A stretch of DNA of 64,000 nucleotides from Crocosphaera watsonii WH 8501 (GTDB taxonomy: Bacteria; Cyanobacteriota; Cyanobacteriia; Cyanobacteriales; Microcystaceae), in NCBI RefSeq assembly GCF_000167195.1, contig NZ_AADV02000006.1, forward strand, positions 1-64,000. Reading direction: 5' to 3'. The notes below the pieces were generated by a model. The model was not told where the DNA came from and made no database searches. It worked only from the letters and a program-made list of their open reading frames with translations. The translations under genes and the position numbers were made by a program. Each line of letters begins with the position of its first letter. The stretch's first letter is position 1. This document shows positions 1 through 6,033 of this stretch, piece after piece.

Positions 1-303
1 GGAATTACTATTGATTTGGGGAGAAAAGGAAAGGAGGGGATTTTGCAATCTATGGACAGCAGAGCAGATTTTTTATCAGATGAATCTCATCGAATTCGCT
101 TTGTTTATATTCCTAAACATACATCGTGGCTTAATCAAATTGAGTGTTGGTTTTCGATCTTAGTCAGGCGTTTACTCAAAAGAATTACTGTCCGTTCAAC
201 TGAAGAACTATCCCAAAAAATTCTCAATTTTATTGATTACTTTAATCAACATTTTGCTAAGCCGTTCGTTTGGAAATTTAAGGGCTTTAAAGATCATAAG
301 TGA
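1..303 (+). pseudogene. IS630 transposase orfB, 3' portion
   Basis: The C-terminal part of the DDE catalytic half of an IS630 transposase, cut by the window edge. The conserved block HTSWLNQIECWFSIL, which holds the catalytic Glu of the family, is intact, and the protein ends KFKGFKDHK as in the complete copy at 40520-41161. It is listed as partial only because the window starts inside it; nothing visible here is broken. Confidence 0.9.
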
Positions 304-331
304 CTGGTGGATTATTTTTGCTAAGCTGCAC
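1..331 (+). mobile_element. IS630-family element, copy 1, right part only
   Basis: The right-hand part of an IS630/Tc1-type element that begins outside the window. It ends with the same terminal repeat (CTGGTGGATT...AAGCTGCAC) as the three complete copies at 17147-18524, 26999-28376 and 39812-41189, followed by the expected TA target at 332-333. It has inserted into a tnpB gene, so the downstream flank is the 3' side of that minus-strand gene. Confidence 0.92.
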
Positions 332-333
332 TA

Positions 334-1379
334 GCATCACTAATTGACTTAGCTAACTTGTGGTTTTTAACCATATTTTTAATAGCTAAGCCTTCAATAG
401 CAATCAGGTCATTGTCTCGCACAAGTTTAGTGGTTAACTTGTGAAGAAAGTCGGTACGAGCATCTTTAATTTGAGCGTAAACTTGAGCTACTTCTAAGCA
501 AGCTTTATATCGATTATTTGAGCCTTTGGTTTTCCGACTCAAAGCCTTCTGCTTTCTTCTTAGCTTTTTGTATAAGCGGTTAAATTGTTTCGGATTAGCT
601 ACTTTTTCTTCGTTGCTAGTAGTAATTAAGCTGGTGATCCCGACATCAATTCCTAATTGTTTACCTGTTTTTGGTAATGGATTAATACTTGGGTCTTTAA
701 CTAAAATTGAGACAAACCAGCGTCCCGATGGGTCAAGTTTAACTGTTACTGTTGATGGGTAACAGTCTTGAGGCAAAAAGCGACTCCAGACTATATTTAG
801 AGGCTCTTTACACTTAGCTAAAAACAGCCTACCATCTCTCCATTTAAACGCTGACTTGGTAAATTCGGCACTTCCCCCATTTCTCTTTTTCTTAAAGTTA
901 GGATATTTAGAACGTTTAGCCCAAAAGTTGGTAAAAGCTGTTTGAAGATGCCTTAAACACTGTTGTAATGGCACACAACTAACTTCATTTAGAAACTCTA
1001 AATCTTCAAGCTTTTTCCACTCAGTTAATAGACTTGATGTTTGACTGTAGCCTATTCGTTCCTGTTTTTCATACCAACCTTCGGTGCGTACCGCTAATCC
1101 CGCATTTCTCACAAACTGATCAGTAATCAGCTAGAGGTTAGATGTGGCTTATTTTTCAAGCGATCGCTTAAAATGGCACACTGTTATTTTTTACTCGCCC
1201 CTCAAATCAAGGTTAAACTCAGACTACATAATGGTTTGAAGTTTAGCGATCGCAGAATTTGTGAGAAATGCGGGTAATGCTTTGTTATACACCAAGCGAA
1301 CACATCCCATTGTCCGTCGCAAGAGGTTTTCTTGCGACGGGCTTGGGTAAAACCTGAATCGATAGGCACGTTCTCTCAT
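334..1379 (-). pseudogene. tnpB: TnpB (IS200/IS605 family), split by a MITE and truncated by IS630
   Basis: RNA-guided nuclease of the TnpB family. Reading from an ATG at 1377-1379, the minus strand encodes an arginine-rich N-terminus ending GCVRLVYNKALAVRTEGW once the 176-bp insert at 1099-1274 and one copy of its TAAT duplication are removed. The frame then runs through RuvC-I (GIDVGITSLITTS, catalytic Asp) and RuvC-II (IAIEGLAIKNM, catalytic Glu). It stops at ...KSISDAS, where the IS630 right end has inserted at the TA at 332-333. The zinc finger, RuvC-III and 3' omega-RNA region are missing, so the protein is dead twice over. The in-frame ATG often called near 1112 is an artefact of the MITE end (GTGAGAAATGCGGG). 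Confidence 0.88.
1099..1274. mobile_element. MITE with IS1380-type ends
   Basis: A 176-bp non-coding insert bounded by perfect 17-bp inverted repeats, CCCGCATTTCTCACAAA at 1099-1115 and its complement at 1258-1274. The same 4-bp sequence, TAAT, flanks both sides (1095-1098 and 1275-1278). The ends match those of the IS1380-family elements elsewhere in the window, including the GCGATCGCAGA just inside one end. It was probably mobilised by that transposase. Removing it with one TAAT restores the tnpB reading frame exactly. Confidence 0.9.
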
Positions 1380-1480
1380 ACTTCACATTTTAACACATAT
1401 TGTGTGAGTAAGCTAAACTAAAAGAGTAAAGCCGTCCTGCGCTCCGCTAAAGGACGGGGTTTCAGACCCAATTTTTCGAT
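1380..1480 (-). repeat. Left end of the IS200/IS605 tnpB element
   Basis: Lies just upstream of the tnpB start. It contains a hairpin with arms CCGTCCT (1432-1438) and AGGACGG (1451-1457) followed by the motif GGGGTTTCAGACCCAATTTTT. Closely similar end sequences recur near 7350-7383, 12895-12922 and 49675-49700, so this is the left end of a repeated IS605-type element. The exact transposition boundary cannot be fixed by eye. Confidence 0.6.
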
Positions 1481-1547
1481 GATAATATTCCCAACATTAT
1501 ACCCATAGATAATATCAAAAATAAAAAAGACAATTAAAAACAATTTA

Positions 1548-2738: not shown

Positions 2739-3854
2739 ATGAAATTTGTTGATGAATATCGTAATGCTGATCTAGCTCAAAAGTATGTCCAAGAGATCAC
2801 ACAAACAATTACTAGACCTTGGACAATCATGGAAATTTGTGGAGGACAAACCCATTCTATTGTTAAATATGGGATAGATCGCCTATTACCTCCTGAGATT
2901 ACCCTGATTCACGGTCCTGGATGTCCTGTTTGTGTTACCCCCATTGAATTAATAGATTGTGCTTTAAAAATTGCTAGTTTACCTAATGTTATTTTTTGTT
3001 CTTTTGGGGATATGTTGCGAGTCCCTGGAAGCGAAAAAGATTTATTAACTATCAAAGCTTCTGGTGGGGATGTTCGTATTGTTTACTCACCTCTAGATAG
3101 TTTAAAAATTGCTCAAGAAAATCCTGATAAAGAGGTTGTTTTTTTTGCTGTTGGCTTTGAAACAACCACCCCAGCAACAGCTATGGCAGTTTATCAGGCT
3201 GATCAACAAGGAATTGAAAACCTCTCTTTATTAGTTTCTCATGTCTTAGTTCCCCCAGCTATGTCAGCCCTTTTATCATCGCCTAATTGTGTGGTGCAAG
3301 GATTTTTAGCAGCAGGTCATGTCTGTACCGTTATGGGCTACGAAGCTTATAAACCTATCGCTCAAAAATATAAAGTACATATCGTCATAACAGGGTTTGA
3401 ACCTATCGACGTTTTGCAAGGAATTTATCATTGTATTCAACAATTAGAAACCGGAAAATATGACTGTGAAAATCAATATATTCGCTCCGTAAAATCTCAG
3501 GGTAACTTTTTAGCACAACAACTCATTCAAGAAATCTTTGAAGTGGTTCCCCGTCGTTGGCGAGGTATTGGAGAAATACGGGAGAGTGGCTTAGGTTTAC
3601 GCCCAGAATACTCCCTCTATGATGCCTTAAAACGCTTTGAAAGCCCCTTATCCTCTTTAACCCCATCCACAGCCCCACAAGTCTGTATTAGCGGTGAAAT
3701 CATGCAAGGGTACAAAAAACCTAACGATTGTCCTGCTTTCGGAACCCAATGTACACCAGAAAACCCTCTAGGTGCGCCCATGGTATCTTCAGAAGGAGCT
3801 TGTGCTGCTTATTACCGCTATCGAAACCATCGGCAACTGGTGGGGCAATATTAA
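2739..3854 (+). CDS. hypD: Hydrogenase maturation protein HypD
   Basis: Scaffold protein that, with HypC, assembles the Fe(CN)2CO centre of NiFe hydrogenases. The key motifs are visible: CGGQTH near residue 33, [10 protein letters not shown] near 60, [10 protein letters not shown], and the C-terminal cysteine cluster ending [14 protein letters not shown], which ligates a [4Fe-4S] centre. The length of 371 residues is normal. No other hyp or hydrogenase gene is in the window. The stop is at 3852-3854 and the IsrB element begins immediately after, so the last few residues may have been altered by the insertion. Confidence 0.95.
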
Positions 3855-3856
3855 TT

Positions 3857-5143
3857 TCATCGTAAAATATGCGAGTGGAAACCCCGTCGTCTGAAAACGT
3901 CGGGGAGGAAACTAGCATCAACTAACAAACAGTTGCTCCAACGCTCTTCCGTTCCTTGTTTACAAATTAAACCCGTAGAGCGTTGGAGCAACACTACTTT
4001 CGAGGCAGTAAATTGTCCCAATCTTTTCCAATCGAAATCGGAAACTGAGACTTGTTTTGCTGTATCCCCAGAACACCAGCCATAGAAAACCTTGTTAGCC
4101 TTTTCCGCCTTGACAAAATCTCCTTTTCTGATGTTATGACGAGTAACTGTCCCTCCGTACTTTCGTCTTTTACCTCCTTTGCCTGGAAGCATTAAGTGAA
4201 GTTGACGACGACTAATGGGAGGGCGTTTGATTACCATGAATTGACAAAGGGTAATAGTTACATTTCCTTGCCAACTATGTCCATGATTATTACCCGAATA
4301 ATGGGCTTTATACCTAAGAAATTGATAACAAGCGAAACTAACACCATCAACAGCATGGGAACTAGGTGTTTGTTCTGCTTTGTTTCTAGATTTTTCCAAT
4401 TTCAGGTGTTTTCTTAAATTGGAAGTTTGCCAACCGTAAATGGTATGAACACTGCTCAACTTTTCTAATTGTTTAAGCATCCATTTCTGTCCTACCATAA
4501 CGGCTGAAAATCCCTTTTCTGACTTAGCTTTTTTTCGACCCGATGTTAAATCAACATCGGCTTTGACGTACTCAAAGTAAATATCAGTAATAGGAAATAC
4601 TTTACACAATTCTTGAATCACTCTTAATTCTAGTTGTCGATTAGCTTTAATAGATGGTGGTAATTTACCTTGTTTTCGATTATTAAACCGCTTTTGACGG
4701 TGCGCTCTTAAGGGAAAAGGTAGTTTACGATTAATTCGTCTTCCCCTTCTTGCTCGTCGCATCATCCGACGATTATCCATCCGTTCTCGAACTTTTTTAA
4801 AGGGTAGTTCAAGGTGAGCAGTAAACAAGGTAAATTTAGCTGATTGGACTCCAATCCCAGAAAAGAGTTTTCCTGGGTCTATTCCACAACTAATAGGTTG
4901 AGTTTTACTATCAGAAGGTTCGGCTACAAGCTGGACGAAAAATTGCCCTAGCTTATTGAACTTATGAATTGCTTTTCCTTCTTTTATCCACCGTCTAGCT
5001 CGACTTGGTTTTGTCGGCATTAACGGTTTTCCGTCTGGTGATAAAACTGGTACTCGATACATAAGATAATTCCTCAAATTAATGAGTTTTTTGTGTCTTC
5101 GCCCACCTAATCTAAGATGCCCTTTCTTAAAGCGTTTGCCCAA
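3857..5143 (-). CDS. isrB: IsrB-like RNA-guided RuvC nuclease (no HNH domain)
   Basis: Member of the IscB/IsrB group, ancestors of Cas9. Domains in order: PLMP motif (residues 40-43 in VLSPDGKPLMPTKPSRAR), RuvC-I (CGIDPG, Asp89), an arginine-rich bridge helix at about 120-155 (NRRMMRRARRGRRINRK), RuvC-II (IYFEYVKAD, Glu191), RuvC-III (SSHAVDG, His263 and Asp266), then a C-terminal domain with GDFVKAE and SGDTAKQVSVSD. RuvC-II and RuvC-III are separated by only about 70 residues with no C..C/H..N HNH signature, so this is IsrB rather than IscB and is expected to nick DNA. The real start is probably Met28 at 5062, which begins MYRVPVLSPDGK; that leaves 401 residues, somewhat longer than reported IsrBs. 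All catalytic residues are present. The C-terminal codons run into the right-end hairpin. Confidence 0.85.
   Translation of the reverse strand: MGKRFKKGHLRLGGRRHKKLINLRNYLMYRVPVLSPDGKPLMPTKPSRARRWIKEGKAIHKFNKLGQFFVQLVAEPSDSKTQPISCGIDPGKLFSGIGVQSAKFTLFTAHLELPFKKVRERMDNRRMMRRARRGRRINRKLPFPLRAHRQKRFNNRKQGKLPPSIKANRQLELRVIQELCKVFPITDIYFEYVKADVDLTSGRKKAKSEKGFSAVMVGQKWMLKQLEKLSSVHTIYGWQTSNLRKHLKLEKSRNKAEQTPSSHAVDGVSFACYQFLRYKAHYSGNNHGHSWQGNVTITLCQFMVIKRPPISRRQLHLMLPGKGGKRRKYGGTVTRHNIRKGDFVKAEKANKVFYGWCSGDTAKQVSVSDFDWKRLGQFTASKVVLLQRSTGLICKQGTEERWSNCLLVDASFLPDVFRRRGFHSHILR
3882..3905. repeat. Right-end hairpin of the IsrB element
   Basis: Arms CCCCGTCGT and ACGTCGGGG pair over nine positions with one internal mismatch. 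The hairpin lies at the 3' edge of isrB beside hypD, as expected for the subterminal hairpin recognised by an IS200/IS605 TnpA. Confidence 0.6.
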
Positions 5144-5144
5144 A

Positions 5145-5366
5145 CAAACTTACAGATAACTCAAACTAGACAAGTATTTGAGAGTGTGTTCCAAGATTAA
5201 GCTCTATGGGCTATTCAACTCTTGCGTCGCCACTTTTAGGAGTGGCAATCCCTAACTTCAACGTAGTAAGTTAGGGTTGTTGAATGTCTTTCCTTCCCAA
5301 ACTCCCCACTTTCTGAACGTTTCAAGCTTATCCGAGTGGTAGTGATCGGTGGGGTGTCTATCCCCG
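5145..5366 (-). ncRNA. Putative omega-RNA of the IsrB element
   Basis: The region directly upstream of isrB, where the guide-bearing omega-RNA of IscB/IsrB systems is encoded, folds into a nested structure that can be read by eye. An outer stem (ATTCAAC 5213-5219 with GTTGAAT 5279-5285) encloses two hairpins, GCCACT/AGTGGC (5229-5246) and CCCTAACTT/AAGTTAGGG (5250-5276). A further GGGG/CCCC hairpin lies at 5351-5365. By analogy the guide would be at the RNA 5' end, copied from DNA beyond the left end, toward apcA. Exact ends are unknown. Confidence 0.65.
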
Positions 5367-5547
5367 ATTTATTAAAAAAATGTTACAAAATATTAAGAAA
5401 CGATAGTGAATGTCAACACAATACCAGAAAATAGATGGGTCAGGTTGCTTGACAATGGATCAAGTTAAGCGATCCAATTGCAACCCGATTTCGTATAAGA
5501 TGTAACTATTAGCGCATCTAGTTTAAATTATTGGGAGGAATCCATCC
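5366..5547 (+). promoter_or_regulatory. apc operon upstream region
   Basis: AT-rich leader in front of apcA. A -10-like TATAAG is at 5494-5499 but no -35 box is correctly spaced; a TTGACA at 5449-5454 is too far upstream. A strong Shine-Dalgarno (GGGAGG, about 5534) precedes the ATG at 5548. The IsrB element now occupies the DNA just upstream, so any distal control sites may have been displaced. Confidence 0.35.
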
Positions 5548-6033
5548 ATGAGTATTGTCACGAAATCCATCGTGAATGCTGATGCAGAAGCTCGCTACCT
5601 TAGCCCTGGCGAACTCGATAGAATCAAAGCCTTTGTTACCAGCGGTGCTGCCCGTTTACGCATTGCAGAAACCTTGACCGGTTCACGGGAAACCATCATT
5701 AAGGATGCTGGAAATCGCTTATTCCAGAAGCGTCCTGACGTTGTTTCTCCTGGTGGAAACGCTTACGGCGAAGAAATGACCGCTACCTGTCTTCGTGACA
5801 TGGACTACTATCTCCGTCTAATCACCTATGGAATCGTTTCTGGTGATGTTACCCCCATCGAAGAAATCGGTTTAGTGGGTGTAAAGGAAATGTATAAGTC
5901 TTTGGGAACCTCAATTGACGCAGTAGCCCAAAGTGTACGAGAAATGAAAGAAGTAGCCACTGGCATGATGTCTGCTGATGATGCAGCAGAAGCTGCTTCT
6001 TATTTCGATTATGTTATTGGTGCGATGAGCTAA
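5548..6033 (+). CDS. apcA: Allophycocyanin alpha subunit
   Basis: Core phycobiliprotein of the phycobilisome, 161 residues, the standard length. Cys81 within [13 protein letters not shown] is the phycocyanobilin attachment site, and the surrounding [11 protein letters not shown] and [12 protein letters not shown] segments are typical of ApcA. It pairs with ApcB to form trimeric discs that pass excitation energy to the reaction centres. First gene of apcA-apcB-apcC, 88 bp before apcB. Codon use and conservation look fully functional despite the mobile DNA nearby. Confidence 0.98.

What the first reader, a model, noticed from the sequence alone, without database searches (positions are those of the whole stretch)
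3856..5366. IsrB/omega-RNA element wedged between hypD and the allophycocyanin operon
The minus strand encodes an IscB-superfamily protein with all RuvC residues but no HNH domain (IsrB type), and the DNA directly upstream folds into a nested three-hairpin RNA with compensating arms. Both the protein core and the RNA scaffold look intact, so this could be an active RNA-guided nickase. The guide end of the RNA would point into the apc upstream region, so its guide could match sequence close to apcA.
Basis: partly seen in the sequence, partly recalled or inferred. Interest (0 to 1): 0.72.

Follow-up and report, generated by a model that had tools for sequence, protein, structure and literature searches.

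The report
IsrB RNA-guided nickase transposon, ordinary member
A cyanobacterial genome carries a small jumping gene that encodes an RNA-guided DNA-nicking enzyme and its guide RNA; it is a well-preserved member of a family already studied in the laboratory, and its guide comes from an older transposon scrap rather than from the neighbouring light-harvesting genes.

Summary
Empty sites of a sister copy, carried over to this copy, put the element at window 3861-5284 (minus strand): omega-RNA scaffold 5284-5063, IsrB from ATG 5062, ATGA just beyond the right end. The 82 nt 5285-5366 lie outside: mostly half of an older MITE into which IsrB inserted. The presumptive guide (5304-5285) is therefore MITE sequence about 245 bp upstream of apcA, and the genome search found no good TAM-flanked second match. 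The scaffold covaries strongly, both IsrB pseudoknots included (97.1% of cells paired; at most 48.6% in slid controls). RuvC residues are invariant among 16 aligned proteins, dN/dS is 0.11-0.15, no HNH was found. Two sister copies (85%) and at least two protein-less 295-bp omega-RNA elements lie in the same genome. IsrB of Crocosphaera watsonii was shown to nick DNA with an NTG TAM (PMC9581776), so this is a new member of a known kind. Less expected: the protein-less omega-RNA elements, and a terminus shared with the window's own TnpB relic.

The parts
3861..5284 (-). whole IsrB transposon (1424 bp), no target duplication
   Evidence: borders carried over from the empty site of sister copy C312; similarity to both sister copies stops at the same places
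3857..5062 (-). IsrB coding sequence from ATG, 401 aa; the last codons read through the right end and stop in the TGA of the flanking ATGA
   Evidence: the tail after STGLICKQG is out of the sister copies' frame
5063..5284 (-). omega-RNA scaffold, first stem TTCAAC/GTTGAA closing two hairpins, then a long stem with further hairpins, two pseudoknots
   Evidence: HEARO match, folding, covariation, covariance model 195 bits (this sequence is in the model)
5285..5304 (-). presumptive 20-nt guide (MITE sequence)
   Evidence: inference: flank next to the left end; guide length as used in PMC9581776
3857..3860 (-). ATGA beside the right end (TCAT on + strand): presumptive TAM side of the empty site
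   Evidence: 10 of 10 distinct Crocosphaera-genus copies aligned have ATGA here; ATGA or TTGA is present at the empty site in relatives
3882..3905 (.). subterminal imperfect palindrome at the right end
   Evidence: sequence; kept in the sister copies
3932..3992 (.). 16-bp perfect inverted repeat (3932-3947 / 3977-3992) over the end of the IsrB frame; 12 bp in the sister copies
   Evidence: sequence
5285..5344 (+). right part of an older MITE interrupted by the IsrB element
   Evidence: multi-copy repeat in genus relatives, two further copies in this genome
3846..3860 (+). probable left remnant of the same MITE; contains the present hypD stop codon
   Evidence: inference from position and CAATA- start; the joined MITE was not found elsewhere
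3836..3845 (+). left copy of the MITE target duplication (ACTGGTGGGG)
   Evidence: 8 of 10 bases equal 5345-5354 (sequence)
5345..5354 (+). right copy of the MITE target duplication (ATCGGTGGGG)
   Evidence: sequence; conserved apc leader follows

Best explanation
A non-autonomous IS200/IS605-like transposon whose cargo is an RNA-guided nickase, IsrB, and its omega-RNA. Shown by sequence: borders, protein family, catalytic residues, RNA structure with two pseudoknots, purifying selection on the protein, insertion between hypD and apcA into a MITE. Inferred: a transcript of the minus strand that starts outside the left end carries about 20 nt of flank (MITE sequence) as guide; IsrB with this RNA looks for guide matches followed by NTG(A). 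At the occupied site the TAM sits at the far end of the element, so the donor is spared; at an empty site (guide followed by ATGA), left after excision or present on another chromosome copy, the complex nicks the non-target strand and favours restoring the element by copying. Movement would need a Y1 transposase in trans that recognises TCAT and the hairpin ends.
For: Protein. Borders and absence of duplication. RNA: 39 of 48 predicted pairs with double changes; with pseudoknots added, 97.1% of 2313 cells paired, 45 of 57 pairs with double changes, 489 compensatory cells against 143 in shuffles and at most 85 in slid controls. Residues aligned with the TAM-reading R323 and Q326 of DtIsrB (my count on the alignment; roles from PMC9581776) are R374 and Q377, both invariant. 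dN 0.057-0.082, dS 0.432-0.688 in 8 of 8 comparisons. Donor lacks NTG beside the guide, empty site has NTGA. IsrB of C. watsonii nicks in vitro with an NTG TAM (PMC9581776).
Against: No transcript, nicking or mobility was measured. No transposase in cis, and none of the Y1_Tnp places in this genome has related ends in the flanks held. The C-terminal tail is frame-shifted against the sister copies. The benefit of a nick, as opposed to a double-strand break, for transposon retention is not established by anything read here. The empty site of copy C220 was not found in 8 relatives, so borders rest on one sister copy plus end alignment.
Confidence: 0.8

Rival explanations
1. Relic: the element arrived intact but is silent and immobile now, so the RNA and protein do nothing at this locus.
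For: No transposase with matching ends found; shifted C-terminal frame; no other exact guide match in the genome.
Against: Open frame over the conserved core, dN/dS 0.11-0.15 (this measures the family's history, not this copy alone), intact RNA pairs including both pseudoknots.
Confidence: 0.3
2. Domesticated regulator: IsrB with its RNA acts on the hypD-apcA region or on apc expression.
For: Only the location.
Against: Guide is MITE sequence, not apc sequence; locus is free of the element in 7 of 8 genus relatives, the eighth uninformative; the sister copies sit elsewhere.
Confidence: 0.02
3. Trans network: the resident IsrB also uses the omega-RNAs of protein-less mini-elements elsewhere in the genome.
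For: At least five omega-RNAs with different flanks in one genome, two without an IsrB gene, these two 295 bp long with 4 differences and both ends kept. Standalone omega-RNAs that work with IscB are mentioned in PMC9581776 (section 6).
Against: The two are closest to omega-RNAs of another IsrB lineage (L116, 83-84%), so the resident IsrB may not bind them; plain mobile deletion derivatives would look the same.
Confidence: 0.15

Closest known systems
IsrB of Crocosphaera watsonii (CwIsrB) and omega-RNA subgroup B2, Hirano et al. 2022, PMC9581776 (sections 6 and 8 and passages read)
   Same: Same genus (judged from named relatives), IsrB without HNH, RNA with the two B2-type pseudoknots, TAM compatible with NTG
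   Different: I had no CwIsrB sequence, so cannot say whether it is one of the three copies here; activity of this copy untested
DtIsrB, PDB 8dmb
   Same: Alignment over nearly the whole protein, E 1.1e-52; RuvC and TAM-reading residues kept
   Different: Different organism; DtIsrB prefers TTGA at 60 C; RNA subgroup B1 there
IscB / HEARO (Rfam RF02033, NCBIfam NF040563)
   Same: RRXRR/RuvC half and RNA upstream; weak HEARO match
   Different: No HNH; NCBIfam IscB 121 bits, below its cut-off of 175; HEARO below gathering score
TnpB elements of IS200/IS605
   Same: Works alike: guide taken from the flank (abstract of PMC11870625); last 27 bases of the window TnpB relic's terminus equal the right end of two Microcystis IsrB elements
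   Different: Different nuclease family; gene in opposite orientation relative to that terminus

Membership tests
IsrB | IscB-superfamily protein (PLMP, RuvC, TAM-interacting parts) of about 350-400 aa | tested here: met
   Pfam RRXRR; alignment to DtIsrB residues 28-396 of the frame; 401 aa from ATG
IsrB | no HNH domain between RuvC II and III | tested here: met
   No HNH match; the RuvC II-III stretch aligns with DtIsrB without a domain-size insert. The structure prediction failed (mean pLDDT 48.9) and adds nothing
IsrB | RuvC catalytic residues kept | tested here: met
   D89, E191, H263, D266 invariant in 16 proteins
IsrB | upstream omega-RNA with core stems and two pseudoknots | tested here: met
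   on 41 of 69 distinct RNAs
IsrB | TAM of NTG(A) type 3' of the target | tested here: inconclusive
   ATGA beside the right end in 10 of 10 genus copies; empty sites read ATGA or, in G002, TTGA. Position fits; recognition not tested
IsrB | guided nicking of the non-target strand | not testable with these tools
   needs protein and RNA
IscB (HNH-bearing) | HNH domain | tested here: not met
IS200/IS605 element | hairpin ends, fixed short target beside one end, no target duplication | tested here: met
IS200/IS605 element | Y1 transposase in cis | tested here: not met
   None between the borders; 1 of 118 IsrB loci (some held twice, some truncated) has a homologue in its flank, 1.66 kb away. Hence filed as non-autonomous, IS200/IS605-like

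The most novel reading that the evidence does not exclude
In this genome IsrB serves in trans a dispersed set of omega-RNAs, three in cis and at least two on 295-bp protein-less mini-transposons, each recording its own insertion site, so that one nickase maintains several non-autonomous elements; and one transposase with target TCAT moves both TnpB and IsrB elements, which carry their nuclease genes in opposite orientation relative to a shared terminus, so that the IsrB TAM is the complement of the transposase target.
Probability: 0.15. Interest if true: 0.55.

Novelty: new member of a known kind. Interest (0 to 1): 0.27.

Why it matters
It is a bounded IsrB element with sister copies, empty sites and a strongly supported RNA model, in the genus from which an active IsrB has been published. 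That makes it a usable test bed for what a nickase, rather than a double-strand cutter, does for a transposon, and for whether protein-less omega-RNA elements borrow the resident IsrB. The hypD-apcA location itself does not appear to matter.

Tried and rejected
Rejected: left end at 5366; apc-directed guide; hidden HNH domain.

Guide matches elsewhere: the 16-mer GGGAAGGAAAGACATT with up to 3 mismatches gives 92 places in the own genome against 50 for the reversed pattern; only the donor is exact, 5 have 2 mismatches, and many of the rest are one repeated sequence. This 16-mer was set two bases too far into the element, before the border was known. The corrected seed plus NTG gives 75 places against 39; the donor has 1 mismatch (in the TAM), the best place with the TAM intact has 2. 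The excess over the control is carried largely by that repeat; I read the rest as chance level.

Led nowhere: structure prediction, mean pLDDT 48.9, not used and not searched. Empty site of copy C220: no match in 8 of 8 genus relatives. The joined short MITE: no full-length copy in 9 genomes. Rfam at gathering threshold misses this RNA subtype: 0 in the window, 0 HEARO in 8 other loci. Strain identity: 6 papers listed, none with '323 contigs' (listing only). Two papers looked up by DOI are not held.

Rows left out: 118 loci examined (several are one place fetched from two collections); 39 had no left end by my pattern, 10 were duplicates, 69 stayed. The pattern was chosen by me, so the 69 illustrate the end and do not test it. 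41 of these 69 went into alignment A2; 28 were left out (other left-end type, tandem left ends, odd lengths). Of the 69, 2 lacked downstream DNA and 51 of 67 matched my right-end pattern, which itself contains ATGA. The own-genome RNA search scored 150 of 1132 first-look candidates, so five omega-RNAs is a lower bound.

Full report
WHAT IS THERE. The minus strand of window 3857-5143 is one open frame of 428 codons from a TTG. The ATG at codon 28 (5062) has GAGG nine bases upstream (row 1) and lines up with the start of homologues, so the protein is most likely 401 aa. It scores 2.4e-53 to Pfam RRXRR and to no other Pfam family at E<=1, 121 bits to the NCBIfam IscB model, below its cut-off of 175, and 1.1e-52 to DtIsrB in PDB 8dmb over residues 28-396. 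RuvC residues and the two residues that align with the TAM readers of DtIsrB (R323, Q326; roles from passages of PMC9581776; the correspondence is my count on the alignment) are invariant in 16 aligned proteins. No HNH was found.

BORDERS. Three IsrB copies lie in the genome: the window, C220 and C312, the other two 85% identical in protein. DNA similarity to both stops at window 5285 and 3856/3857. For C312 I joined the two flanks and searched the genus (own genome and 8 relatives). Six of 8 relatives are contiguous across the join: four read AATAATRA|ATGAC (G007, G004, G006, G008), G002 reads AATAATAA|TTGA and G001 AATAATGG|ATGA. G005 has a TnpB element a few bases further on, and G003 gave no match. 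Nothing is duplicated. Carried over to the window, the element is 3861-5284, followed on the minus strand by ATGA. The Rfam HEARO match begins at 5284. For C220 no empty site was found. All 10 distinct copies from the genus have ATGA beside the right end.

THE RNA. On 41 aligned relatives RNAalifold predicts 48 pairs, 39 with double changes. I replaced one of these pairs and added by hand the two pseudoknots described for IsrB RNA group B in PMC9581776 (sections 6 and 8 read, legend in passages). Of 2313 cells over 57 pairs 97.1% are standard pairs; 45 pairs have double changes and 489 cells are compensatory, against 75.5%, 32.9 and 143.1 in shuffles and at most 48.6%, 24 and 85 when partners are slid. 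The structure was derived from these sequences, which favours the unslid version, but the gap is large.

SURROUNDINGS. hypD (2739-3854) and apcA (5548-6033) are neighbours without the element in 7 of 8 genus relatives; in the eighth, G001, hypD was not in the stretch held. Window 5292-5348 matches a repeat found many times in genus relatives and twice more in this genome. Several copies show inverted ends CAATACT.../...AGTATTG and, by eye, target duplications of about 9-11 bp (L083, L084, L090), so I call it a MITE. In the window ACTGGTGGGG (3836-3845) and ATCGGTGGGG (5345-5354), 8 of 10 alike, would be its duplication. The apc leader shared with the seven closest relatives starts at 5354-5367. 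The history is then: a MITE inserted at the 3' end of hypD, then IsrB inserted into the MITE. The left MITE part is only 15 bp and its assignment is an inference; the joined MITE was not found elsewhere.

GUIDE AND TAM. The presumptive guide is 5304-5285. At the donor it is followed by TTC, not NTG. In the own genome no other exact match to the 16-mer exists, and the best place with the TAM intact has two mismatches in 14.

IS IT ALIVE? dN is 0.057-0.082 and dS 0.432-0.688 in 8 of 8 comparisons over 366-367 codons, without stops. The tail after STGLICKQG is out of the sisters' frame and ends in the TGA of the flanking ATGA. A search for Y1 transposases gave 11 rows in the genome, two of them overlapping; the ends of the element match their flanks by no more than 11 bases. 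One of 118 IsrB loci has a Y1 homologue in its flank, 1.66 kb away. PMC9755519 (passages) likewise reports that few HEARO nucleases are next to TnpA.

TWO EXTRA OBSERVATIONS. A covariance model from the alignment finds five omega-RNAs in the genome (150 of 1132 candidates scored): the three above plus C232:5006-5218 and C301:13365-13577. These two lie in 295-bp elements that differ at 4 positions, have both ends and ATGA, unlike flanks, and no IsrB gene. Among the RNAs compared they are closest to L116 (83-84%). Second, GGACGGGGTTTCAGACCCAATTTTTCGATGA lies at window 1452-1482, upstream of a broken TnpB gene and on the other strand; its last 27 bases equal the right end of the Microcystis IsrB elements L097 and L131. 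This suggests one transposase with target TCAT for both kinds of cargo, which would make the IsrB TAM the complement of that target. This is inference.

VERDICT. A good, ordinary IsrB element. IsrB of Crocosphaera watsonii has been tested in vitro (PMC9581776), and this genome appears to belong to that genus, judged from the closest named relatives. The claim about apcA falls.

Noticed in passing
L234 (C232:5006-5218) and L235 (C301:13365-13577), own genome: Two 295-bp elements with a full omega-RNA, both ends and ATGA but no IsrB gene; 4 differences between them, different flanks.
   Followed up: partly
window 321-1482: Broken TnpB gene on the minus strand; the terminus at 1452-1482 upstream of it ends in 27 bases identical to the right end of two Microcystis IsrB elements, in opposite orientation to the gene.
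   Followed up: partly
window 16-303: C-terminal fragment resembling an IS630-family transposase at the window edge (below the curated cut-off; Pfam DDE_3 above its cut-off).
   Followed up: no
L203, around 1540-2935: In relative G005 a TnpB element of about 1.4 kb sits a few bases from the murJ-upstream site where C312 carries IsrB.
   Followed up: no
L172, L177, L182 (viral contigs): The left-end hairpin appears repeated in tandem in front of IsrB.
   Followed up: no
window 3932-3992: Perfect 16-bp inverted repeat over the end of the IsrB frame; 12 bp in the sister copies. Possible terminator or end structure.
   Followed up: no
window 3846-3854: The present hypD stop codon lies in the probable MITE remnant, so the last residues of hypD differ from relatives.
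   Followed up: partly
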